Assembly: GCA_003762615.1 (NCBI GenBank)
Contig: RIAZ01000005.1
Coordinates: 124,001-188,000, forward strand
Direction of reading: 5' to 3'
DNA length: 64,000 bases
Source of the DNA: Muribaculaceae bacterium Isolate-037 (Harlan)
GTDB lineage: Bacteria; Bacteroidota; Bacteroidia; Bacteroidales; Muribaculaceae
The position numbers and the translations under genes are program-made. The notes below the pieces were generated by a model. The model did not search any database. It saw only the letters and a program-made list of their open reading frames with translations, and was not told the DNA's origin. Position 1 is the first letter of the stretch; every line of letters starts with the position of its first letter. Positions 40,636 through 64,000 of this stretch are shown here, piece by piece.

Positions 40636-41580
40636 GAAGTCATTTAAACTTTTTTGATTTTTTAAGAAGCAATACTGCAAAAGCCAGATAATTTCAACCT
40701 TTCCAGCTCGAAGCTGTAGTGTCGTGGCACAGGAGCAACGTCCTGAAAGAATCCATCCAGGCATTGGATTTCTCGATGACGTACCTCTCTTTATACATTT
40801 CCTCTTCAAAGCAGGAATCCGCATCCTCATGGTCATATTTGGGATTCTCCGCCACATTGGCAATCACGCCATGAGCGTTGTATACTCGGCGGAAATCGGC
40901 ACAGTCAAATCCGGCATCGGCGTTGTTGAAGATACCGTCCACGGAAATCCCAGCGCTCGTGATGGTGGAGAAAATCACTGTCATGGATTTCTCAATCTCA
41001 AAAACATCATTATGATTGCCCTCCATCGGCTCGGAGATCGCCAACGGGAGTCCATGTCTGTCTGTGAAGTAAATTGCATTTGTGGTCTTGCGTTTCTTAG
41101 GGGCTTGATATGCAGCCAATTCTCCTCCACGTGTGCAGGGAGTATGACTGCCGTTGGTATGCGTCAAAGACAAATCAACGGAAACCCTGTTTTCTCTCAG
41201 AAGATTGATGAACCTCTCTTTCCAATGCCCTCCCTTGCACCACTTTCGATAGTGATGGTACACTGCCCCATGTTTGAGTACGGTTTCACTGAAAAGATGC
41301 TCAACCGGAAGATGTTCCCACTGGCATCCGACCTTCAGCTTGTAGAGGATGGCATTGATTATCTCGATGATGCACGCTTTGGAGACAAAACCGCGTTTTG
41401 CCACGGGAAGATGCGGCAGTATTCGATTTGTTATTGTATCTTTGTCAAGTACAGTGTAATTCATAAAAGTTGCTATTATGAGAGTCGTGTCCCATAATAT
41501 GGCGATTTTCCATGTGATTACGCTGTATTTTAACATTATACAAGAATATTTAGTATTTCTAAATTAGTTTAAATGACTTC
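40636..41580 (-). mobile_element. IS5-family insertion sequence, 945 bp, probably inactive
   Basis: Bounded by 15-bp inverted repeats (GAAGTCATTTAAACT at 40636-40650, its complement at 41566-41580). It carries a single transposase gene on the minus strand whose natural stop codon lies inside the left repeat. I see no clean target duplication, which may mean later rearrangement of a flank. The transposase has two disabling changes. Confidence 0.85.
40640..41464 (-). pseudogene. IS5-family transposase with in-frame stop and altered catalytic residue
   Basis: The frame from 41464 (MNYTVLDKDTITNRILPHL) contains IS5-type landmarks: KRGFVSKACIIEIINAILYKLK, HHYRKWCKGGHWKERF, GGELAAYQAPKKRKTTNAIY, NNADAGFD and ERYVIEKSNAWMDSF. 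It ends at a TGA (40696-40694) after ASSWKG. The same frame continues for 17 codons (NYLAFAVLLLKKSKKFK) to a TGA at 40642-40640, as in complete relatives. The first aspartate of the DDE triad, normally in a DGSHTP motif, is Asn (NGSHTP, codon 41155-41153); the second Asp and the Glu are present. Both lesions suggest a dead element. Confidence 0.85.
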
Positions 41581-41786
41581 AATAAGAACTGAATGAATTT
41601 GTATTGGGTGTGTCGTCTTTAAATAGGAGATGCACCCGATACAGGTGAAAGTGGATGTTGATGGATGAGTTGAGTGATGGTGACAGGGATATTTTCATGT
41701 GTTGAAAAACCGTTGAAAATCTGTGATAAAAGTTTGCGTAAATGGATTTTAATGTCTATTTTTGTGCAAACCAAAACGCTATTGCA

Positions 41787-42683
41787 ATGTCTACTTATAT
41801 CAATCCGATGACCGATTTCGGTTTCAAGTATATATTCGGTAGGGAAGAGTCGAAGGACTTCCTTATTGATTTCCTCAACAACCTGTTGAAGGATGAGCCG
41901 GGATTTGACACGATTATCGACCTTCAGTATCTTGACAAGGAGAAGAGCCGGAGACGTAAGAGGGAGAGGGGTGTAATCTATGACATCCACTGCCAGACAA
42001 CAAATGGGAAACGCTTTACTGTCGAGATGCAGAACAGTAGCCAGAATTATTACATTGACCGAATGGTATATTATGCCTCGAAAGCGATAGTTGACCAAGG
42101 AGAGGTAGGGTCGGACTGGCTGTATGAGTTTGAGCCGATATACATCATCTCGTTCATGAATTTCTGTCTTGAACAATTTAAGGATGAGTTTAGGATAGAT
42201 GCCGCGTTGTGTGACCTCCGGACACACCAACCGATCAGCGACAAGCAACGTTACATATTCATACAGCTTCCGTTATTCGGTAAGGATAAACCGGAGGACT
42301 GCAGTGAGAAGATAGATCAGTGGTTTTATATATTTAACAACATGAGTACTATGGAAACAATGCCATTCACACAAAAGGATAGACTTTTCCACCGGTTGTC
42401 ATCGGTGGCATCATACGCGAATCTGAGTGACGAAGATAAGATGGATTATGATGCAGATCTGAAGGCCTATCGAGATATTGTCGGTCAACTCTCTTTCGCT
42501 AAAGCAGAGGGACGAGAGGAAGGACGAGAGGAAGGACGAGAGGAAGGACGAGAGGAAGGACGAGAGGAGAGGGAAACTGAGATGATTATCAATATGATGA
42601 AAGCCGGTTTGCCGATAGAACAGATTGCCGTGATTGCTAATATGGCGGTTGATAAGGTTAGGAAGGTGTTTTGCAAGATGTGA
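41787..42683 (+). CDS. Rpn-family PD-(D/E)XK nuclease (recombination-promoting/"transposase" type)
   Basis: The start at 41787 (MSTYINPMTDFGFKYIFGRE) is the family's usual beginning; the frame is open back to 41742. The 298-residue product has the nuclease core. DFGFKYIFG and the KRERGVIYDIHCQT strand are visible, followed by GKRFTVEMQNSSQNYYIDRMVYYASK with the E-x-Q of PD-(D/E)XK enzymes. The C-terminal part contains a run of Glu-Gly-Arg-Glu repeats encoded by a 12-bp microsatellite. Such proteins are widespread in gut Bacteroidota, often annotated as transposases though they act as DNA endonucleases. Roles in recombination and phage defence have been proposed for relatives. Confidence 0.9.
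   Translation: MSTYINPMTDFGFKYIFGREESKDFLIDFLNNLLKDEPGFDTIIDLQYLDKEKSRRRKRERGVIYDIHCQTTNGKRFTVEMQNSSQNYYIDRMVYYASKAIVDQGEVGSDWLYEFEPIYIISFMNFCLEQFKDEFRIDAALCDLRTHQPISDKQRYIFIQLPLFGKDKPEDCSEKIDQWFYIFNNMSTMETMPFTQKDRLFHRLSSVASYANLSDEDKMDYDADLKAYRDIVGQLSFAKAEGREEGREEGREEGREEGREERETEMIINMMKAGLPIEQIAVIANMAVDKVRKVFCKM
42510..42569 (+). repeat. 12-bp in-frame microsatellite in the Rpn gene
   Basis: Five copies of GGACGAGAGGAA (the last with a final G) encode the repeating Gly-Arg-Glu-Glu tetrapeptide. Because the unit is four codons, copy-number change alters length without changing frame. Confidence 0.9.
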
Positions 42684-55902: not shown

Positions 55903-56000
55903 AACTACCACCAAGAACGCGGAGGTCACAGAGATTTTATATAAAAACTTTGCGTTCTCTGCGTTCTTGGCGGTAAATCCACCACGGAGAACGCTGAGAG
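55903..56000. repeat. REP-like palindromic element, copy A
   Basis: ACCACCAAGAACGCGGAG near 55908 forms an imperfect stem of about 27 bp with the stretch around 55950-55975 (ending TTCTTGGCGGT), across a TTTTATATAAAAA loop. A further CCACGGAGAACGC unit follows. Closely related to 57776-57912 and lying against the end of the converging macro-domain gene. Confidence 0.8.
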
Positions 56001-56012
56001 CATGGTATCTGA

Positions 56013-56483
56013 TTATTCGGAGATGGTGTTACCGCTCTGATAGGATTCCACTACATATAATTCGATATTCGGATAATTGGCTGATGCTTTTTCCAAAACA
56101 TCTTTCACATCATTCCATTCCAAACCACCCAATCCGGCTCCAATGGCAGGAAGGGCAATCTTGGTTACATCTTCTTCTGATGCCAGGTCCAACATCTTGG
56201 TTACCGATTTTTCAATATATTCCAACTTAGCTTTGGTTCTCCATGTGAGCTGTGTGGCAAGGTTATATATGTGTCCTATGCCATAATCGTAATCAAACAC
56301 ATCTCCGGGAATATATTCCCCGTTTTTGCACAATTCCTTATATTCCAAATACATTTCGGGATATTTATTACGGAATTGTAATGCTATGCCTTTACCCATA
56401 GCTCCGGCACAATTACATCCGTGTGCAAAACTTGTCACATCGGTTAAGGTGAAAATGTCTCCTTTTTCAATATATGTGATCAT
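56013..56483 (-). CDS. Stand-alone macro-domain protein
   Basis: A 156-residue single macro domain that should bind ADP-ribose and may remove it from proteins or nucleic acid. The start MITYIEKGDIFTLTDVTSFAHGCNCAGAMGKGIALQFRNKYP is followed by DVFDYDYGIGHIYNLATQ and ALPAIGAGLGGLEW, the phosphate-binding loop. The GAMGKGIALQF motif is closest to the DarG/Poa1-like group, whose members reverse ADP-ribosylation. No DarT-like toxin gene lies beside it within the window. It has its own promoter and a 160-base leader. Confidence 0.88.
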   Translation of the reverse strand: MITYIEKGDIFTLTDVTSFAHGCNCAGAMGKGIALQFRNKYPEMYLEYKELCKNGEYIPGDVFDYDYGIGHIYNLATQLTWRTKAKLEYIEKSVTKMLDLASEEDVTKIALPAIGAGLGGLEWNDVKDVLEKASANYPNIELYVVESYQSGNTISE

Positions 56484-56935
56484 CTGATAATGTCTATTTT
56501 ATTTGGTTTTACGGTTATACTCGGCTGATTGAGGAATGATTATACATTGACGGATAGGATCCTCGGAATGACAGATAATTTTCAATCCAAAACTCCCTTA
56601 TCATTTTGTATTATATTTAAAATTTGAGCCGTTTTCGTAGCGAAAGTACAAATTTAGCCTGAAATTTTGGTATAATCAAGAAAATATGAGAATATTTGGC
56701 ATTGAGAAATAACTTTAGAAATTGGTAAAAAAGACGCACGAAGAAATACAAGAAAAGAAGAAATTTCTTAGTGAAATTAAGAAATAAACCATGGGTAACG
56801 CGGAGTGTACGGAGAAATGTGTTTGATGGATTGTTGGAGTTTGTTTGTATGGAATATTTTTGTAAATTTGCAGATGGATAGTGTGTTGGAGAAAGTATAT
56901 GATTATGTGAATATTTTAGTTGTTGATAATGTGTT
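56484..56935. promoter_or_regulatory. Divergent promoter region between macro-domain and lipoprotein genes
   Basis: On the minus strand CTTG (56680-56677), 20 bases and TAAATTTG (56656-56649) serve the macro gene. On the plus strand TTTG (56840-56843), 19 bases and TAAATTTG (56863-56870) serve the lipoprotein gene. Between them lies an A/G-rich stretch (56725-56790, GACGCACGAAGAAATACAAG) resembling that at 54893-54930. No further gene was seen. Confidence 0.65.
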
Positions 56936-57760
56936 ATGTGTGAGAAGTCTATAAAGATTGTGATTCTTTTTGTAGTTTTATCGGTTTTGTCGGTGACGTT
57001 TCAAGGGTGTAATAAATCAAAAAAAATCTCTACAATTGCTGTTGAGGATACCAAAGATACTGTTCTTGCAGATTATGATACAGTAAGTACAAAACAGGCA
57101 GAAGCTACAGAAACAGTTTCTACTGAAGAAATCCTTAATGAAGATGAACATGCAATTATGCCTCCTACTGACAAGGATTTATATTACCTGAATGATTATA
57201 TAGCCAACCGGTTTGATGCATTATCATTAGACAATCCTATTCGGCAGAATGTCTATTCTTGGGGAATAGGTAGTGATTGTGTTCATGTATACATGATGAT
57301 TAATACTCCACGGTGGAGGAATAAGTTCCGGCAAGAAATATGTGACTCCCAACATATCAGATTTGAGGGTCCGGAAAAACCTGAGAAGATCAATATTCCT
57401 GTAAGGGCTGATATCTCTCCTGACAGTATCAGCTTGTTGCCTATTGCCGATTCATTTCCGAAAGATTCCAAGTCTGTCTCTTTTTCATTAAAAAATTATG
57501 GTTCAAGATCTATATCTTTCGGTGAAAATTATACGGTGGCATATCAAGGGGAAGATGGAACTTGGTATAAACTTCCATCTCAAGGTGTCTATAATTCCAT
57601 TGGATTCAGTTTGAGGAAGGGTGGTAACCATGAATTTAAGGTGGGAATGCGTCCTGCTCTCAATGATAACAAACCGGGCACGTATCGTCTTTATAAGAAG
57701 ATTGAATTTGAGGATAACAACGACCAATTCTGGATTATGACAGAATTTCAGTTATACTGA
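56936..57760 (+). CDS. Lipoprotein with Ig-like (Big_14-type) domain
   Basis: A 274-residue protein with an N-terminal hydrophobic stretch and lipobox-like cysteine (SVTFQGC, Cys24), so probably lipid-anchored. Residues 30-80 are a Thr/Glu/Asp-rich linker. The C-terminal domain (about 155-274) has SFSLKNYGSRSISFGENYTVAYQGEDGTWYKLP, GFSLRKGGNHEFKVGM and NKPGTYRLYKKIEF. This pattern matches bacterial Ig-like domains found in many exported Firmicutes and Bacteroidota proteins. The middle region is not recognised. It has its own promoter and lies upstream of the MoxR cluster. Confidence 0.7.
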   Translation: MCEKSIKIVILFVVLSVLSVTFQGCNKSKKISTIAVEDTKDTVLADYDTVSTKQAEATETVSTEEILNEDEHAIMPPTDKDLYYLNDYIANRFDALSLDNPIRQNVYSWGIGSDCVHVYMMINTPRWRNKFRQEICDSQHIRFEGPEKPEKINIPVRADISPDSISLLPIADSFPKDSKSVSFSLKNYGSRSISFGENYTVAYQGEDGTWYKLPSQGVYNSIGFSLRKGGNHEFKVGMRPALNDNKPGTYRLYKKIEFEDNNDQFWIMTEFQLY

Positions 57761-57775
57761 TACTAAACCCAAAAG

Positions 57776-57912
57776 GTGTAAGCAGAGAAATTATATAAAA
57801 CTTTGCGTTCTCTGCGTTCTTTGCGGTAAATCCACCACGGAGAACGCGGAGATCACGGAGATTTTTATTTAAGAACTTTGCGACTCTGTCTTAGTGGTGT
57901 TTTACCACGGGA
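57776..57912. repeat. REP-like palindromic element, copy B
   Basis: Shares the CTTTGCGTTCTCTGCGTTCTT core and CCACCACGGAGAACGC unit with copy A at 55903-56000, followed by a partial second copy ending TTAGTGGTGTTTTACCACGG. Predicted to form a long imperfect hairpin in either orientation. Confidence 0.8.
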
Positions 57913-57922
57913 GATATGAATG

Positions 57923-57953
57923 TTTGGAATTACGGAATGTTTTTGTAAATTTG
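57923..57953 (+). promoter_or_regulatory. Promoter of the SWIM-DUF5691-MoxR cluster
   Basis: TTTG at 57923-57926, 19 bases and TAAATTTG at 57946-57953. The surrounding about 35 bases (GGAAT-TTTTTGTAAATTTGCAG, then ATGGATAGT) are nearly the same as the lipoprotein promoter at 56840-56870. Confidence 0.75.
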
Positions 57954-58037
57954 CAGATGGATAGTATGGGTTAGGGTGGTTCCCTGAAATGAGGGGATGG
58001 AGTGTTTTTATACCATGTAAAATCAATCGGAATCTTT

Positions 58038-59366
58038 ATGTTGCAAAATCTGACTGAAGAACAAATCGTGCAACTGGCGCCGGATGCTGCTTCTGTAAAG
58101 GCAGGGAAGGGATTGGCTGTCAAGTCGAAATGGCCGCTGTTGCATTTTAGCCAGCGTGCAGTGTGGGGGCATTGTCAGGGTAGTGGCAAGAATCCGTATC
58201 AGACTGTCGTCGATATGAATGAGATTGCATTCCGATGTTCTTGTCCAAGCCGTAAGTTCCCTTGCAAGCATGGTCTTGGGCTACTGTTGCTTTATGCCGC
58301 ACATCCGGAACTGTTCTCTTCTGAGGAGGAACCCGACTGGGTGAGCGAATGGCTTTCCAAACGTGAGGCGAAAGCCGAGAAGAAGGAGCAGAAGGCTAAG
58401 AGTGACAAACCTGTAGATGAGGAGGCACAGGCACGTCGTGCAGCGTCACGCCATAAGAAGGTGTTGGACGGTATCGACGATTTACAGATATGGATAAAGG
58501 ATCTTTTGCGCAACGGGTTGCTTAACGTGCCGGAACGTGCATATTCTTTGTTTGACAATATAGCCCGACGTATGGTTGATGCCCAGGCTACAGGACTGGT
58601 AAACAGGTTGAGAGCCATTCAGGAGATAGATTTCTATAAAGAGAGTTGGAAATATATCCTTACCGACCGGTTGAGCAAACTATACCTACTTTCTGAAAGC
58701 TACCGTCATATTGACGCCCAACCGGAGGATTGGAAATGGGAGATACGCACCCAGATAGGTTATCCGCAATCAAAGGAGGAGGTTCTTGCCGGAGAGGGTG
58801 TCCGGGATGAATGGATGGTGGTGCACCGTAGGGTGAGCGATCAGAATGGCGTAAGGATGTCGGCTTATTGGCTATATGGCAAGGAGAGCCGACGTTTTGC
58901 AGTTTACCTTGATTTCACAGCTCCCGGGAAATTGCCTGATTTCAATCTGTTGCCCGGCAGCACGTATTCCGCAGAGATATGCTACTATAAGGGCGTGGCG
59001 CAAATTCGTGGTCTTCTCAGGGATTACTCCCCGTCAGACAATCGGTTCATCCCGGAGTTCTGTCATGATTTAGATGAGGCTACTTCACTCTATCGGAAAA
59101 CCATGCGTGAGAATCCGTTTGTGGAGGAGATTCCTATGCTTGTGGATAATCTTCGGATAGCATCGAAAGGGAAGGATTTGTATCTTTTGGATGCCGCCGG
59201 CAAAGCGGTCGTCGCAGAGGTGGATGATGCAATAAAGACAGATATCCTTGCAATCACGGGTGGAAAACCGTTCTCCGTTTTCATACTTGCCGGAAATGTG
59301 GTCTGGCAATTGAAATCTATATGGTCGGAATCTGAATTTTATTCATGGAAAGATGAAATTAATTGA
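58038..59366 (+). CDS. SWIM zinc-finger protein
   Basis: The start at 58038 (MLQNLTEEQIVQLAPDAASV) is preferred; the frame is open back to 58002. The 442-residue protein carries a SWIM finger near the N-terminus, CxCx6CxH in RCSCPSRKFPCKHGLGL (Cys67, 69, 76, His78), a zinc motif for binding nucleic acid or proteins. A charged helical segment (about 95-150) and a larger domain ending in a VWQLKSIWSESEFYSW stretch follow. Families of this kind are regularly found beside DUF5691, MoxR and DUF5682 genes. Its stop overlaps the DUF5691 start by 14 bases. Confidence 0.88.
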   Translation: MLQNLTEEQIVQLAPDAASVKAGKGLAVKSKWPLLHFSQRAVWGHCQGSGKNPYQTVVDMNEIAFRCSCPSRKFPCKHGLGLLLLYAAHPELFSSEEEPDWVSEWLSKREAKAEKKEQKAKSDKPVDEEAQARRAASRHKKVLDGIDDLQIWIKDLLRNGLLNVPERAYSLFDNIARRMVDAQATGLVNRLRAIQEIDFYKESWKYILTDRLSKLYLLSESYRHIDAQPEDWKWEIRTQIGYPQSKEEVLAGEGVRDEWMVVHRRVSDQNGVRMSAYWLYGKESRRFAVYLDFTAPGKLPDFNLLPGSTYSAEICYYKGVAQIRGLLRDYSPSDNRFIPEFCHDLDEATSLYRKTMRENPFVEEIPMLVDNLRIASKGKDLYLLDAAGKAVVAEVDDAIKTDILAITGGKPFSVFILAGNVVWQLKSIWSESEFYSWKDEIN

Positions 59367-60834
59367 ACCTATCATAAATACTGCCTTGCTTGGCACCGGT
59401 ACGCAGGAATACATACCCGGATCGCTTGCGGCTCCTCTTGATGATGCTTTCCGAAAGATCCGGGAGAGTGGTGCCGACAAGGAGAGTGCATTCTATCAGA
59501 TGTCTGCCATAGCCTTTGCATATCATAATGCCGGAATGGAGGCTGCCTCTGATGATGGCGTGCATGCGGTGGAGGAGTCGCCGGAAGAGACGTTGCCTTA
59601 TCTTCCAAAGGCAGCTGGTGAATTGTTGCGCACGCTTGTGGTCAATAAGTATAACTATCTGCTCATATATGCCTACCGCAGATGGGATAATTTGGGGCGG
59701 ATTATACCGCCATTCTATCTGCCCGAACTGATCTCCCATGCCTGCGTCAGCAATAACCCTAACCGTAGTAAGGAACAGGAATTACTTTCCCGTCTGTCGG
59801 GCAGAAGAGGGGAATGGCTTGCACGCCTCATGGGATTGAGTCTTTCCGGCGAGAAGGAACCTACGGAGTGGGACACCGCATCGCATGAGGAGAGGAAAAT
59901 GATGCTTCTCCGCATGAGGGAACGGGTGCCTTCGGAGGGGTTGGCGTTGCTTGGCTCCGAGCTTAAGAATGAGCCGGCGGCGCGGCGCGATGAACTGATA
60001 CAATGTCTGAAAGTGAATCTGAGTAAGGATGACGAACCGTTTCTTCAGGAGATTGCGAAGTCTGACCGTAGTGCGGTTGTAAGGACTACGGCATTGCGTC
60101 TGTTGTCGAAGTTGCCGGATTCCGAACTTGTAAAGAGATATTGCAGTCTGCTTGAGGGGAATATAAAGTGGAGGATGCTGATGGGATGGTCTTACGGAAC
60201 AATCTCATACACCCCGGAGATGAAGTCTCTTGGTCTGGAGGAGGTCAGCCCGAACAAGGGGGAGAAGGATAGCGACTATCTGCTGCGCCAGTTGGCTGAA
60301 CGCGTGCCTTTAAGTTTCTGGGCGAAATTATATGACTGCACCCCGGAGAAAGCGGCTGCAAAATTAGCGGCTCGTCCTCCATTCGGCAAATATTTCGACG
60401 TATGCAGTGCGATAGAGACCTTTAAGGACAGGATGTGGGCATTCCAGACCCTGAAGGACAGTCCGGAGGAGTACAGATGCGTAAGATTGATGGGACTCTT
60501 GTCGCCACAACAGAGGGAGGAGATAAAATTCACCCTTAACGAAAGGGGGCTCGATATCCCTTCATCATGGTTTAATGAGGATGGAGAGGAATGGGGAGTC
60601 AAATTCTCCACGAGGATATTGCAGCATGTGGTTCGCTCAAGATTCTATTATTTTGATAAGGATATGGTGGAGCGGCTTGCTTTGCGTATGCCTCAGTCGC
60701 TGCGTCGGGAAGTGGAGAGATATGCGTCGGAATATGATGAACAGCAGATGCTCAGTAAATTTTTCCGTATGCTGAATGAATACATGATAATAAAAGGACA
60801 AATAAACACCTTGTTAAACGACAATATATTATGA
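59353..60834 (+). CDS. DUF5691 family protein
   Basis: A 493-residue cytoplasmic protein beginning MKLIEPIINTALLGTGTQE, typical of DUF5691. It is largely alpha-helical, with several HEAT-like pairs in the middle (about 190-330, VRTTALRLLSKLPDSELVKRY). The C-terminal part includes FSTRILQHVVRSRFYYFDK and ALRMPQSLRREVERYA. No catalytic motif is apparent, so a scaffold or adaptor is most likely. It overlaps the SWIM gene (14 bases) and the MoxR gene (4 bases), indicating translational coupling. Confidence 0.85.
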   Translation: MKLIEPIINTALLGTGTQEYIPGSLAAPLDDAFRKIRESGADKESAFYQMSAIAFAYHNAGMEAASDDGVHAVEESPEETLPYLPKAAGELLRTLVVNKYNYLLIYAYRRWDNLGRIIPPFYLPELISHACVSNNPNRSKEQELLSRLSGRRGEWLARLMGLSLSGEKEPTEWDTASHEERKMMLLRMRERVPSEGLALLGSELKNEPAARRDELIQCLKVNLSKDDEPFLQEIAKSDRSAVVRTTALRLLSKLPDSELVKRYCSLLEGNIKWRMLMGWSYGTISYTPEMKSLGLEEVSPNKGEKDSDYLLRQLAERVPLSFWAKLYDCTPEKAAAKLAARPPFGKYFDVCSAIETFKDRMWAFQTLKDSPEEYRCVRLMGLLSPQQREEIKFTLNERGLDIPSSWFNEDGEEWGVKFSTRILQHVVRSRFYYFDKDMVERLALRMPQSLRREVERYASEYDEQQMLSKFFRMLNEYMIIKGQINTLLNDNIL

Positions 60835-61907
60835 ACCTGCTCAGACAACATGCCGAACAACAGTTTGCAGAAGAATTGCATGAGTTGAAAAAGAATGAAA
60901 CAAATCCGGTGCCGGAAAATTGGGAGATGTCGCCGCAATCGGTGGTCACTTATCTGATGGGAGGCACGCTAAAGAATGGGTTTGAGGTGTCGCCGAAATA
61001 TATAGGCAACCGCCGGTTGATGGAGATAGCCGTAGCCACTCTGGTCACAGACCGCGCGCTATTGCTATATGGGCTTCCCGGCACGGCGAAAAGCTGGGTG
61101 AGTGAGCATATCGCAGCGGCTGTAAGCGGTGACTCTACATTGATAGTGCAGGGTACTGCCGGAATCGGTGAGGAGGCTATACGTTATGGTTGGAACTACG
61201 CACGCTTGCTTGCAGAGGGTCCAAGCGAGGGGGCGTTGGTTCAGACTCCGGTGATGAAAGCGATGCAGGAGGGTAAGATTGCGCGTATCGAGGAGCTGAC
61301 GCGTATCGGTTCCGACGTGCAGGATACCCTTATCACTATTCTCTCGGAGAAGACTCTTCCGATACCGGAACTTAACAAGGAGGTGCAGGCTATCAGGGGA
61401 TTTAATGTGATAGCTACTGCCAACAACCGCGACAAGGGTGTGAACGATCTTTCAAGCGCGTTGAAACGAAGATTCAACACTGTGATTCTCCCATTGCCCG
61501 ACAGCATTGAGGAGGAAACGGATATAGTGCGCAGGCGTGTGGAGAGTTTTGAAAAGGTGATGAGTCTGCCTTCCGAGCGTCCGGCATTGGAGGAGATACG
61601 GCGCGTTGTGACAATTTTCAGGGAACTGCGTCAGGGCGTGACGTGCGATGGAAAGTCGAAACTTAAATCTCCTTCCGGCACTCTCAGCACAGCTGAGGCA
61701 ATATCTGTGGTCAACAACGGGTTGGCTATGGCAGGCTATTTCGGCGACGGCGTGATACATGCAGAAGATCTTGTGTCGGGAATATTGGGCGCGGTGATAA
61801 AGGATCCGGTGCAGGATAAGGTGGTATGGCAGGAGTATATGGAGACTGTCGTTAAGAAACGCGACGGCTGGAAAGACATATACCGCGCATCAATAGACTT
61901 TATATAA
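60831..61907 (+). CDS. MoxR-family AAA+ ATPase
   Basis: A 358-residue AAA+ protein with a P-loop LYGLPGTAKSW (about residues 80-90) and a Walker B-like IARIEELTR, in which the usual DE is replaced by EE. Sensor region NVIATANNRDKG and arginine motif ALKRRFNTV follow. MoxR ATPases act as chaperones that assemble complexes or metal sites, usually with a VWA protein. Overlap with the DUF5691 gene and proximity to DUF5682 place it in a coupled system. The VWA partner would be expected beyond the window end. Confidence 0.92.
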   Translation: MNLLRQHAEQQFAEELHELKKNETNPVPENWEMSPQSVVTYLMGGTLKNGFEVSPKYIGNRRLMEIAVATLVTDRALLLYGLPGTAKSWVSEHIAAAVSGDSTLIVQGTAGIGEEAIRYGWNYARLLAEGPSEGALVQTPVMKAMQEGKIARIEELTRIGSDVQDTLITILSEKTLPIPELNKEVQAIRGFNVIATANNRDKGVNDLSSALKRRFNTVILPLPDSIEEETDIVRRRVESFEKVMSLPSERPALEEIRRVVTIFRELRQGVTCDGKSKLKSPSGTLSTAEAISVVNNGLAMAGYFGDGVIHAEDLVSGILGAVIKDPVQDKVVWQEYMETVVKKRDGWKDIYRASIDFI

Positions 61908-61984
61908 AGCGGTATCAGCCCCCAGCCCCTAAAGGGGGAGTTTGTTTCCATAAACCATAAACCATAAATTATAAACCATAATCA
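61908..61984. repeat. Intergenic repeat patch between MoxR and DUF5682
   Basis: A GC-rich palindrome (AGCCCCTAAAGGGGG near 61922-61940) is followed by tandem ATAAACC units (61950-61983) resembling other patches in this window. Confidence 0.65.
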
Positions 61985-64000
61985 ATGGCTACTCATCTAT
62001 TGGGAATAAGACATCACGGTCCGGGGTCATGTCGCAATGTGGCGTCATATCTTGAGGAATTGAAGCCGGATCTCATTCTGCTTGAGGGTCCTCCCGAAGC
62101 TGACGGTCTGCTGAAAGATGTGGTGGATCCGCAAATGGTTCCGCCGATTGCACTTCTCGCTTATCAACCGGACGCTCCTCAGAATGCCGTGTTCTATCCG
62201 TTTGCAGACTTTTCCCCCGAATGGCAGACAATACGTTACGCCGTGCGTAATGGCGTGGAGATACGCATGTTTGACCTGCCGTTGTCCTACTCCATGGCAT
62301 TAAATAATGACTCCGCAAATGATGATTCCGCGCAGTCCGTTCAGGAGGATAATTCGGAGGGGAGTATGACGGATGCGGTCAAGAGAGATCCTTTTGATTA
62401 TCTTGCGGAGATTGCCGGATATGCGGATGGTGAGTCGTGGTGGGAATCCACGATAGAGATACGCCATGACAATGCCGGCGTATTCGAGGGGGTGCAGGAG
62501 GCAGTCACGGCATTGCGTGATGCGCTTCCGGAGTCTACTTCTCCGCGCGATCTGCTGCGCGAGGCGTGGATGAGGAAGATGTTGCGAGCCGCACAGAAGG
62601 AGAATTTCGAGCGGATAGCCGTGGTGTGCGGTGCATGGCACGTGCCCGCTTTGAGCCGTATGCCGAAGGTGAAGGATGACAATGAACTGCTGAAGGGTCT
62701 TCCGAAGGTAAAGGTGGAGTGTACGTGGATACCATGGACCTACGACCGCCTGTCTCTGCGTAGCGGATATGGCGCGGGTATCATGTCGCCCGGATGGTAT
62801 GACTATCTGTGGAATAATCCGGATGACGATGGTACACGATGGGTGGCAAACGTGGCGGCTCTGCTACGTCAGAAGGATATGGATATATCGGTGGCGCACG
62901 TGATAGAGACTATCCGGCTTGCTCATGCTACGGCTGCGTTACGCGGTCTACCATCTCCGTCGCTCGCAGAATATAATGAGGCAGTCACTACGGTGATGGG
63001 TTTCGGTGATGATGTGCTTCTCTCAATAATAAGAGAGCAGATGATTATCAGCGACCGTCTGGGGAGTGTGCCCGATAATGTCCCGAAGGTGCCGCTGCTC
63101 AGTGATGTGGAGCGACAGCAGAAGAGGCTGAGAGTGCCGTTTAAGGCTGGTATAAAGGAACTTGCTCTTGATCTTCGTAAGCCGGGTGATCTTGAGCGCA
63201 GCATCCTCTTCCATCGGCTGAACCTGCTTGGTATAAGCTGGGCGACACCCGGCATAAGCGAAGGGAAGGGCACTTTCAAGGAGACGTGGACGCTTTATCA
63301 TAATCCGGAGCAGATCATTCGTATAATCGAGGCGGCTATCTGGGGAAATACCTTGGAGGAGGCTGCACGGAAATATATGTTGAGTCAGACGGAGAAGGCG
63401 GAGCGTATCATGGATCTCACCCGACTCTTGAAGAATATAATCCCCGCTGATCTTCCTCAACTTGTGGAGTCGATCACGCGGCGTCTTGACAGTCTTTCGG
63501 CTGCCTCGGCAGATATAGTTGATATGATGAGGGCTTTGCCCGACCTTGCAGGTATTGTCAGATATGGAGATGTACGCAATCTCGATTTCTCGAATGTAAG
63601 GGGTATGCTCCACACGATGACCGCCCGTATCCTTGCCGGTGGCGTGCTTGCATGCGTGAATATAGATGAGGATGCGGCTGAAAGTCTTCTTGAACGCCTG
63701 ATAGCTGCCGACTACGCGCTCTCCACTCTTGATGATGCTGAACTGAATGAGATGTGGACGGGTTTCATATCCCAACTTCGCGGCGGCTCCAATGTGCATC
63801 CCGTCATAGCCGGATATGCCACCCGTATGCTCCACGATAAGCGTCTGCTCTCTTCGGAGGAGGTGGCGGATGCGTTGGAATATCGTTTGTCGGTGGGGAA
63901 TACTCCGGCAGAGATGGCTTATTGGCTTGAGGGTTTCCTACGAGCTTCCGGCACCGTCTTGCTGCTTGATGAGAATCTTTGGAACCTTGTCAATGACTGG
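61985..64000 (+). CDS. DUF5682 family protein, partial
   Basis: The frame opens with ATG at 61985 (MATHLLGIRHHGPGSCRNVA) and is still open at 64000, 672 codons in; the C-terminal end is missing. The N-terminal pattern GIRHHGPGS...LEELKPDLILLEGPPEAD resembles the TraB/ChaN-like (EREA) fold, where a His and Glu bind substrate or metal. Later segments (VVCGAWHVPALSRM, WIPWTYDRLSLRSGYGAG) are typical of DUF5682. It belongs to the SWIM-DUF5691-MoxR cluster. Enzymatic function is not established. Confidence 0.85.
   Translation, partial: MATHLLGIRHHGPGSCRNVASYLEELKPDLILLEGPPEADGLLKDVVDPQMVPPIALLAYQPDAPQNAVFYPFADFSPEWQTIRYAVRNGVEIRMFDLPLSYSMALNNDSANDDSAQSVQEDNSEGSMTDAVKRDPFDYLAEIAGYADGESWWESTIEIRHDNAGVFEGVQEAVTALRDALPESTSPRDLLREAWMRKMLRAAQKENFERIAVVCGAWHVPALSRMPKVKDDNELLKGLPKVKVECTWIPWTYDRLSLRSGYGAGIMSPGWYDYLWNNPDDDGTRWVANVAALLRQKDMDISVAHVIETIRLAHATAALRGLPSPSLAEYNEAVTTVMGFGDDVLLSIIREQMIISDRLGSVPDNVPKVPLLSDVERQQKRLRVPFKAGIKELALDLRKPGDLERSILFHRLNLLGISWATPGISEGKGTFKETWTLYHNPEQIIRIIEAAIWGNTLEEAARKYMLSQTEKAERIMDLTRLLKNIIPADLPQLVESITRRLDSLSAASADIVDMMRALPDLAGIVRYGDVRNLDFSNVRGMLHTMTARILAGGVLACVNIDEDAAESLLERLIAADYALSTLDDAELNEMWTGFISQLRGGSNVHPVIAGYATRMLHDKRLLSSEEVADALEYRLSVGNTPAEMAYWLEGFLRASGTVLLLDENLWNLVNDW

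What the first reader, a model, noticed from the sequence alone, without database searches (positions are those of the whole stretch)
57923..64000. Coupled SWIM-DUF5691-MoxR-DUF5682 cluster of unknown function
Four consecutive genes share overlapping start/stop codons (14 and 4 bases) and one strong promoter. They combine a zinc-finger SWIM protein, a HEAT-like scaffold, an AAA+ MoxR ATPase with an altered Walker B (EE instead of DE), and a DUF5682 protein with a TraB/ChaN-like N-terminus. Families of this type are known to co-occur, and a conflict or stress role has been suggested for MoxR-centred systems, but I know of no assigned activity. The window ends inside DUF5682; a VWA partner probably follows. 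This is the best candidate here for an uncharacterised system.
Basis: partly seen in the sequence, partly recalled or inferred. Interest (0 to 1): 0.8.

Follow-up and report, generated by a model that had tools for sequence, protein, structure and literature searches.

The report
Five-gene ATPase–hydrolase machine, function unknown
A run of five genes found together in many kinds of bacteria, including E. coli, probably builds one protein machine in which an ATP-driven motor works with an enzyme of the TraB/EreA fold; I found no report of what it does, and the predicted active site makes that testable.

Summary
The cluster is real. Sequence beyond the window supplies the predicted VWA gene, so the unit is SWIM–DUF5691–MoxR–DUF5682–VWA. 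Of 80 homologous loci (the best 80 of at least 589, biased to this form), 61 hold all five genes, 60 of them in one order and strand. In 296 genomes of the phylum, MoxR, VWA and DUF5682 occur in the same seven. Where the operon has come apart, partners are mostly kept elsewhere. Fusions join SWIM to DUF5691 and DUF5682 to VWA. E. coli yehI-L-M-P-Q is a second form, with DUF4132 for DUF5691. The 'altered' Walker B is a subfamily trait. The predicted N-terminus of DUF5682 has the TIKI/EreA/ChaN/TraB fold, with His–Glu–His in 68 of 68 proteins; sequence methods alone do not show this. I propose a MoxR–VWA motor controlling a TIKI-type hydrolase, with SWIM and DUF5691 recognising the client. A defence role is not supported but not excluded: yehM is in 5284 of 5426 E. 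coli genomes and no defence family recurs among neighbours. The substrate is unknown. No paper in the searched library mentions DUF5682 or DUF5691.

The parts
57923..57953 (+). Bacteroides-type promoter match (TTTG, 19 bases, TAnnTTTG) before the cluster
   Evidence: Exact pattern match; 8 in window against mean 1.21 in shuffles. Lies in a 47-nt repeat, 85% identical to 56839-56885. Consensus recalled; activity not tested.
58038..59366 (+). SWIM zinc-finger protein, 442 aa from ATG 58038 (a longer GTG start at 58002 is possible)
   Evidence: Reading frame. Pfam SWIM E 6e-05, 22.9 bits against cut-off 19.6; C66, C68, C75, H77 invariant in 29 of 29 aligned relatives of both forms (numbering of a 441-aa version that begins at 58041).
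59353..60834 (+). DUF5691, 493 aa, HEAT-like scaffold (fold inferred)
   Evidence: Pfam DUF5691 E 2.9e-64; HEAT_2 E 0.11; its profile weakly matches designed alphaRep chains, best E 0.0019.
60831..61907 (+). MoxR AAA+ ATPase of the YehL subfamily, 358 aa; Walker A GLPGTAKS, Walker B ending EE
   Evidence: Pfam AAA_5 E 3.9e-36; 37% identity to E. coli YehL over 359 columns; EE in 12 of 12 aligned.
61908..61984 (+). 77-base gap between MoxR and DUF5682 with the palindrome CCCCTAAAGGGG at 61926-61937
   Evidence: Sequence; one match in the window, 0.01 expected; listed as terminator-like, but the number of such hits (7) is near the shuffled mean (5.9).
61985..64000 (+). DUF5682, 744 aa, cut by the window end (runs to L003:2720). 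N-terminal TIKI/EreA/TraB-like domain, C-terminal helical solenoid (both from predicted models). The fifth gene, VWA (CoxE-like, 375 aa), follows at L003:2760-3887, outside the window.
   Evidence: Pfam DUF5682 E 1.4e-265, VWA_CoxE E 2.2e-46; models; fold comparison.

Best explanation
The five genes make one ATP-driven machine, probably cytosolic, and E. coli yehL-yehM-yehP-yehQ encode its second form. Shown here by computation: the genes form a conserved unit; MoxR, VWA and DUF5682 are present and absent together; the MoxR keeps its ATPase motifs and the VWA its metal-site motif; DUF5682 has a TIKI/EreA/ChaN/TraB-type domain in its predicted model and an invariant His-Glu-His set. Inferred: the MoxR ring and the VWA adaptor grip an exposed peptide of a client protein and remodel it. 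The zinc-finger SWIM protein, held on the HEAT-like DUF5691 (on DUF4132 in the E. coli form), chooses the client. The solenoid of DUF5682 docks on the VWA protein, and its TIKI domain cuts a peptide or ester bond in the presented client. The likely role is processing or quality control of a particular protein under some stress, rather than phage defence. Which client is cut, or whether the TIKI domain is itself the thing switched on, is not known.
For: Order and strand: 61 of 80 loci hold all five genes, 60 of 61 in the same order and strand; median junction distances 3, 12, 15 and -4 bases, with start codons chosen by rule. Co-occurrence in 296 genomes of the phylum: DUF5682 in 7, YehL-type MoxR (E up to 1e-20) in the same 7, VWA (E up to 1e-10) in the same 7, DUF5691 in those 7, one below the Pfam cut-off, plus one further weak hit; SWIM was not counted in this set. 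Dispersed but kept: in G037 the five genes lie on four contigs; of ten genomes examined MoxR is found in 9, VWA in 10, DUF5691 in 9, SWIM in 8. Fusions: SWIM-DUF5691 in L058, L078, L095; DUF5682-VWA in L014. Fold: the N-terminal model (pLDDT 85.1, pTM 0.83) has as its twelve best chains TIKI/EreA/ChaN/TraB proteins (about six different proteins): TraB Z 10.5 (186 residues, 5.3 A), ChaN 9.4 (150, 4.1 A), HopBA1 8.4 (137, 3.5 A), EreC 8.0 (165, 5.1 A); the first other fold has Z 6.8. H10, H11, E34, H219 in 68 of 68 rows of one alignment and in 13 of 13 of another that includes three rows of the second form. Against PrgY, H10 and E34 fall on its His and Glu without a gap. RRSP and EreC need this His-Glu-His set (PMC6254334 and PMC7979712, passages). 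VWA [DE]xSGSM in 84 of 86 hits; the other two are pieces of one broken gene.
Against: No activity, interaction or phenotype was found for any of the five proteins. Sequence comparison does not show the TraB kinship: no Pfam TraB hit; against a GumN-type TraB alignment the profile comparison (0.3%) is no better than two unrelated controls (0.4%, 0.3%). Foldseek gives no PDB match at E 0.001 or better (best 0.0023, a TraB chain). The second Glu of RRSP and EreC, two or three residues before the first His, is not there in DUF5682 (I and G). The fold can be used without this chemistry: PMT lacks the motif (PMC6254334 passages), and 2g5g is titled as haem binding to ChaN. Nothing tells a client from a regulator. 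In the dispersal test, drafts are included; G298 and G301 lack SWIM hits, G301 lacks MoxR and DUF5691 hits, the SWIM hit of G162 covers only positions 137-431 and so not the zinc finger, and the VWA matches of G037 and G166 each contain one stop codon.
Confidence: 0.45

Rival explanations
1. A maturation chaperone in the manner of CoxD-CoxE, NorQ-NorD or RavA-ViaA: MoxR and VWA help a metal or cofactor into a client enzyme, and DUF5682 is the client or a non-cutting binding part with a TIKI-like fold.
For: The VWA gene belongs to Pfam VWA_CoxE. Known MoxR-VWA pairs are described as chaperones or insertases (PMC7159879 section 8; PMC3893208 passages). 2g5g, the second-best fold match, is titled as haem binding to ChaN.
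Against: No metalloenzyme recurs beside the cluster: the commonest neighbour families are in 3 of 84 genes (25 of 123 families were shown). The His-Glu-His set is invariant in 68 of 68, which suggests catalysis or metal binding in DUF5682 itself.
Confidence: 0.27
2. A defence or conflict system: MoxR-VWA acts as a threshold switch that frees the TIKI-domain enzyme as an effector when a phage or plasmid protein is sensed.
For: MoxR-VWA pairs lie at the core of predicted conflict systems (PMC7159879, passages and sections 8, 21, 22). The locus is patchy (7 of 296; 1 of 61 in the genus) and has hits in 36 plasmid-collection records. SWIM and DUF5691 evolve fast: mean column identity 29% and 27%, against 58% for MoxR and for VWA and 43% for DUF5682, in alignments of different make-up, as sensing parts might. 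In this genome a DarG-like macro gene, a HipA-like gene and an OLD-like ATPase lie within about 10 kb of the cluster's ends.
Against: yehM is in 5284 of 5426 E. coli genomes. No PADLOC family in more than 2 of 84 neighbours (no control set was run). Operons dissolved with genes mostly kept. DUF5682 has one hit in 50,697 phage records, an unverified scaffold. Several 'plasmid' records are chromosome-sized.
Confidence: 0.2
3. A nucleic-acid-linked stress module: SWIM (and the DUF4132 partner of the E. coli form) bring the machine to DNA or RNA, where MoxR-VWA removes or cuts a bound protein. This does not exclude the first explanation; it names another kind of client.
For: SWIM ligands are invariant (29 of 29); DUF4132 genes lie in 8 of 80 loci and in the E. 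coli form. A DUF4132 protein of Deinococcus radiodurans is strongly upregulated on DdrO depletion (PMC8533742 passages); it was not shown to be a partner of a YehL-type MoxR.
Against: SWIM domains also bind proteins (recalled). No DNA repair family is among the 25 neighbour families shown of 123.
Confidence: 0.15
4. Chance neighbours without a common function.
For: A few homologues have unrelated neighbours, judged by eye (L034, L042, L043, L082, L088).
Against: 60 of 61 in one order, identical sets of seven genomes, fusions, partners mostly kept when unlinked.
Confidence: 0.01

Closest known systems
E. coli yehI-yehL-yehM-yehP-yehQ (YehL subfamily of MoxR ATPases)
   Same: Same MoxR, DUF5682, VWA and SWIM families side by side; MoxR 37% identical; His-Glu-His set kept. 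YehL is one of seven named MoxR subfamilies (PMC3893208 and PMC9964418 passages).
   Different: DUF4132 instead of DUF5691, SWIM protein longer (666 aa) and last instead of first. DUF5691 and DUF4132 are not shown to be related.
RavA-ViaA, CoxD-CoxE, NorQ-NorD, CbbQ-CbbO (MoxR-VWA chaperones; last two recalled)
   Same: An AAA+ MoxR with a VWA partner; VWA of the CoxE family.
   Different: Those pairs have no DUF5682, DUF5691 or SWIM partner (recalled). Among the 50 rows shown of 68 plasmid records, YehL-type hits score 217 bits or more; other MoxR proteins at most 72, apart from one short 60%-identical fragment with 93.
MoxR-VWA ternary conflict systems (VMAP, iSTAND, FtsH, beta-propeller)
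   Same: MoxR-VWA core plus further conserved proteins; P-loop of the form GxxxTAKS.
   Different: None of the defining third parts is seen. The bpMoxR Pfam hit is unspecific: 286 of 296 genomes pass its cut-off; high-scoring bpMoxR proteins are 21-25% identical to ours over 124 to 288 columns.
TIKI/EreA/ChaN/TraB fold superfamily (RRSP, EreC, HopBA1, TraB, Tiki)
   Same: Predicted fold and His-Glu-His pattern.
   Different: Large helical C-terminal part, tied to an AAA+ machine, no signal peptide seen by eye; not recognised by Pfam TraB.

Membership tests
MoxR AAA+ ATPases, YehL subfamily | MoxR-type AAA+ domain with intact Walker A | tested here: met
   AAA_5 E 3.9e-36; GxPGTAK[ST] in 89 of 92 hits, 3 not matching.
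MoxR AAA+ ATPases, YehL subfamily | Closer to E. coli YehL than to other MoxR proteins | tested here: met
   221 bits to YehL; other MoxR at most 72 bits in the rows shown. No tree of all subfamilies was built.
MoxR AAA+ ATPases, YehL subfamily | VWA partner gene | tested here: met
   VWA next to DUF5682; same seven of 296 genomes.
TIKI/EreA/ChaN/TraB superfamily | Common core fold | tested here: met
   Predicted model; twelve best chains of this group, Z 10.5 to 7.1, first other fold 6.8, a tie at the tail. 6a7h and 6a8j are read as RRSP from their residue numbers. Predicted, not solved; Foldseek best E 0.0023.
TIKI/EreA/ChaN/TraB superfamily | Catalytic His-Glu pair and second His | tested here: met
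   As a sequence pattern: H10 (and H11), E34, H219 in 68 of 68; H10 and E34 on the His and Glu of PrgY without a gap.
TIKI/EreA/ChaN/TraB superfamily | Second Glu before the first His (2His/2Glu of RRSP; E47 of EreC) | tested here: not met
   Positions 7 and 8 of DUF5682 are G and I in the window's protein. Not an absolute feature: in PrgY the letters before that His read GTA.
Pfam TraB_PrgY_gumN (PF01963) | Score over the Pfam cut-off | tested here: not met
   No PF01963 hit at E 0.5; PrgY itself scores 117.9.
MoxR-VWA ternary conflict systems (Kaur et al. 2020) | VMAP, iSTAND, double FtsH or beta-propeller third part | tested here: not met
   None in the Pfam scans of the five proteins; the paper's main text holds no 'Yeh', SWIM or TraB.
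CoxD-CoxE maturation systems | Linked client metalloenzyme | tested here: not met
   No recurring client: commonest neighbour families in 3 of 84 genes (25 of 123 families shown). Single cases were not examined.
Anti-phage defence systems | Match to known defence models | tested here: not met
   PADLOC: only IetA hits in the MoxR P-loop region (E 0.00016 and 0.0017) and GajB E 0.06.
Anti-phage defence systems | Setting in defence islands | tested here: inconclusive
   80 PADLOC families match some neighbour at E 1e-10, none more than 2 of 84; no control set; own locus has TA-like neighbours.
Anti-phage defence systems | Protection in a phage challenge | not testable with these tools
   Needs an experiment.

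The most novel reading that the evidence does not exclude
A new class of AAA+-driven hydrolase machine: a MoxR-VWA motor feeding a TIKI-superfamily peptidase (DUF5682), with client choice by a SWIM-HEAT pair. It would be widespread in bacteria and encoded by a near-universal but uncharacterised operon of E. coli.
Probability: 0.25. Interest if true: 0.85.

Novelty: new variant of a known kind. Interest (0 to 1): 0.6.

Why it matters
The YehL subfamily of MoxR ATPases has long had a name (Snider and Houry 2006, seen here only as cited by PMC9964418) but no function that I found. Its DUF5682 partner now gets a predicted enzyme fold and named candidate catalytic residues. E. coli K-12 MG1655 carries YehL (PMC3893208, passages), so ordinary gene removals and point changes in a laboratory strain can test this. 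If the TIKI domain cuts, the system would join MoxR-VWA motors, known as chaperones, to proteolysis or ester hydrolysis.

Tried and rejected
Walker B as an oddity of this protein: rejected, EE in 89 of 92 hits.

Membership in the beta-propeller ternary systems on the strength of the bpMoxR Pfam hit (28 bits, cut-off 27): rejected, 286 of 296 genomes pass that cut-off and high-scoring bpMoxR proteins are remote. The P-loop form GxxxTAKS, named in PMC7159879, is shared but I give it little weight.

DUF5691 as a relative of DUF4132: profile comparison 1.1%, not shown.

TraB kinship by sequence: negative against a nine-row GumN-type alignment (0.3%) where unrelated controls gave 0.4% and 0.3%; weak for single PrgY (18.5%, E 0.0013). 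The assignment rests on fold and on the residue pattern.

Whole-protein fold search of DUF5682 gave mostly solenoids, with the Tetrahymena TraB chains among the first ten, so the N-terminal domain was modelled alone. Sequence searches of solved structures with the DUF5682 and VWA profiles found nothing of use; the MoxR profile matched midasin best.

Literature: at least two of yehL, yehM, yehP, yehQ only in two genome papers (listing); a broader search was swamped by unrelated words; no paper holds DUF5682 or DUF5691; DUF4132 in three papers, of which I saw passages of two and only the listing of the third. Subscription journals are mostly missing from the library, so absence there is not absence in print.

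Weaknesses of my counts: the 80 loci are the best 80 of at least 589 and were found by one peptide pattern, so E. coli-like forms are thinly sampled; the family profiles were built by iteration on the same loci; the hits include fragments and a few genes twice; neighbour genes were called by a simple longest-ORF rule, and 84 of the 182 collected neighbours were scanned, picked by hand as mostly the nearest on each side with several near-duplicate Chitinophaga loci dropped; no control set was run. That the window's phylum is Bacteroidota is inferred from its nearest named relatives; the tool names no phylum.

Full report
What is there. The window ends inside the fourth gene, so I located it in its genome (G000, contig C58, window = 124001-188000) and read on (L003). 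The unit has five genes: a SWIM zinc-finger protein, DUF5691, a MoxR ATPase, DUF5682 and a CoxE-like VWA protein. The first two junctions overlap by 14 and 4 bases; the third has a 77-base gap; the fourth has 39 bases. After VWA comes a HipA-like gene on the other strand, so the unit ends there. A Bacteroides-type promoter match lies at 57923-57953.

It is a unit in evolution. A scan of one-per-species genomes found at least 589 encoding stretches; the best 80 were kept. Of these, 61 hold all five genes and 60 of the 61 have them in the same order on one strand; the exception, L052, has VWA upstream. Where a partner is missing although the contig had room, the counts are MoxR 6, DUF5691 4, SWIM 6, VWA 5 of 80 loci. 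Median distances between genes are 3, 12, 15 and -4 bases, with overlaps in 25 of 60, 18 of 70, 11 of 71 and 38 of 69 measured junctions; starts were chosen by rule and junctions outside -200 to 3000 bases were left out. A quick tree of 68 DUF5682 proteins spans 12 groups of phylum rank in the tool's labels and is clustered by them (15 label changes, least possible 11, shuffled mean 38.4; 7 rows without a label), so the family looks old rather than freely moving. The window's protein pairs with that of Butyricimonas synergistica, 60% identical, from which I take the phylum to be Bacteroidota.

The genes live and die together. In 296 genomes of the phylum DUF5682 is in 7, the YehL-type MoxR in 7 (E up to 1e-20) and the VWA in 7 (E up to 1e-10): the same seven, from seven genera. 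DUF5691 is in those seven, one of them below the Pfam cut-off, and weakly in one other. SWIM was not counted in this set. In some lineages the operon has dissolved. I looked in ten genomes with unlinked, partly linked or linked copies: MoxR was found in 9, VWA in 10, DUF5691 in 9 and SWIM in 8. In G037 the five genes lie on four contigs. The picture is not perfect: G301 lacks MoxR, DUF5691 and SWIM hits, G298 lacks SWIM, the SWIM hit of G162 misses the zinc finger, and the VWA matches of G037 and G166 each hold one stop codon. Loci with an isolated DUF5682 sit among unrelated genes, judged by eye. Keeping scattered genes together is hard to explain without a shared task. Fusions add contacts: SWIM with DUF5691 in two planctomycetes and an actinomycete (L058, L078, L095), DUF5682 with VWA in a Streptomyces plasmid (L014).

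Two forms. The plasmid collection gave annotated copies of the window's form in Deinococcus, Rhizobium and Methylosinus (the last with a broken VWA gene) and of a second form in Iodobacter, Allorhizobium and E. coli, in which DUF4132 stands in for DUF5691 and SWIM comes last. In E. coli this is yehI-yehK-yehL-yehM-yehP-yehQ. YehL names one of the seven MoxR subfamilies (PMC3893208 and PMC9964418, passages). The window's MoxR is 37% identical to YehL; other MoxR proteins among the 50 rows shown score at most 72 bits. Eight of 80 loci of the first form also carry a DUF4132 gene, so the two scaffolds are not strictly alternatives.

The proteins. VWA: the metal-site motif is kept, [DE]xSGSM in 84 of 86 hits; the two misses are pieces of the broken Methylosinus gene. 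SWIM: the four zinc ligands are invariant in 29 of 29. DUF5691: a weak HEAT signal. SWIM and DUF5691 are the least conserved parts, mean column identity 29% and 27% against 58% for MoxR and VWA. DUF5682: a confident model (68-row alignment, pLDDT 90.4, pTM 0.84) with an alpha/beta N-terminal domain and a helical solenoid (about 415-713).

The N-terminal domain of DUF5682. Modelled alone (pLDDT 85.1, pTM 0.83) and compared with solved structures, its twelve best matches are of one superfamily: the Tetrahymena TraB protein (Z 10.5, 186 residues, 5.3 A), ChaN (9.4), HopBA1 (8.4), EreC (8.0), two chains that I read as RRSP from their residue numbers (7.8, 7.1) and Bcr135 and its like (7.7 to 7.3); the first outsider has Z 6.8, a tie with the tail, and a third RRSP chain has Z 6.2. 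Foldseek alone puts the same TraB chains first with E 0.0023 at best. PDB names the Tetrahymena chain a TraB family protein, and the paper on the supercomplex says that complex IV there holds one (PMC10060162, passages). PMC6254334 groups RRSP, HopBA1, Bcr135 and ChaN as TIKI superfamily (passages). Among viral models the best match is again a TraB family protein (E 6.9e-5). RRSP and EreC use His-Glu plus a second His: RRSP H3902, E3930, H4030; EreC H50, E78, H289; both are described as metal-independent, Tiki as metal-dependent. DUF5682 has H10/H11, E34 and H219 in 68 of 68 proteins, and in 13 of 13 rows of an alignment with three rows of the second form. In the alignment to PrgY, H10 and E34 fall on its His and Glu without a gap. 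Limits: the sequence methods do not reach significance, a further Glu of RRSP and EreC is absent, and I could not measure distances in the model.

How it probably works. MoxR-VWA pairs are said to share one scheme: the VWA grips a peptide of a substrate and the ATPase ring changes its shape (PMC7159879 section 8). I propose that here the gripped client is presented to, or released by, the TIKI domain of DUF5682, which cuts it; SWIM on DUF5691 would choose the client. The fusions fit a SWIM-DUF5691 arm and a DUF5682-VWA arm joined by MoxR. The steps from 'presented' onward are inference.

Defence or housekeeping. yehM is found in 5284 of 5426 E. coli genomes, 5166 with at least 80% of the gene. 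Among 84 neighbour genes no Pfam family occurs more than 3 times and no PADLOC family more than twice; there was no control set. PADLOC does not know the five proteins beyond weak hits. These weigh against a mobile defence system. On the other side, the locus is rare in the phylum and sits in 1 of 61 genomes of its genus (22 of the 61 are at least 90% complete and at most 5% contaminated), its G+C content (0.51-0.53) is above the window mean of 0.47, SWIM and DUF5691 evolve fast, and TA-like genes lie near it here. Gain by transfer in this lineage is likely; that does not tell the function.

Novelty. MoxR-VWA machines and the YehL operon are known as such, so this is not a new kind of system from nothing. 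The five-part definition over many phyla, the co-retention after operon loss, the two scaffold forms and the TIKI-type assignment with named residues were not found in the papers searched (listings, and passages of twelve papers, with three sections of PMC7159879). I rate it a new variant of a known kind.

Noticed in passing
window 56839-56885 and 57922-57968: Two 47-base copies, 85% identical, of a promoter-bearing stretch stand before two consecutive transcription units, a Big_14 lipoprotein gene and the SWIM gene.
   Followed up: partly
window 55908-57870: A dispersed element like CCACGGAGAACGCGGAG: four of the five matches in the window (up to 3 mismatches, 0.06 expected) crowd into these 2 kb.
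   Followed up: no
window 56013-56483, minus strand: Macro-domain protein like the N-terminal part of DarG (127.8 bits, below the NCBIfam cut-off of 250; PADLOC DarG 1-144 of 329). No DarT was looked for.
   Followed up: no
L003:3920-4948, minus strand: HipA-like protein (HipA_C E 3.9e-40) directly downstream of the VWA gene.
   Followed up: no
L003:11923-13466, minus strand: AAA_15/OLD-like ATPase with a 179-aa partner that has no Pfam match at E 0.05; the ATPase hits many PADLOC models (AbiLi, AriA, GajA).
   Followed up: partly
L016:11217-12382: The VWA gene of the cluster on a Methylosinus trichosporium OB3b plasmid falls into three reading-frame pieces and is absent from the gene table.
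   Followed up: no
L146:1450-3564 (MT835988.1): A DUF5682 gene on an unverified 'Bacteriophage sp.' scaffold from human faeces, the only record hit among 50,697 phage records; possibly bacterial DNA.
   Followed up: partly
L020, L021, L022, L027, L032, L036, L037, L039: DUF4132 gene (with HEAT repeats in L020, the one scanned) beside the window-type cluster, the partner family of the E. coli form.
   Followed up: partly
window 60831-61907: Among solved structures the profile of this MoxR subfamily matches the AAA modules of eukaryotic midasin best (E about 2e-30), far above a bacterial MoxR-like chain (2r44, E 1.8e-8).
   Followed up: no
window 40694-41536 minus and 41742-42683 plus: IS4/5-like transposase (DUF4096) and a PD-(D/E)XK family transposase about 16 kb upstream.
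   Followed up: no
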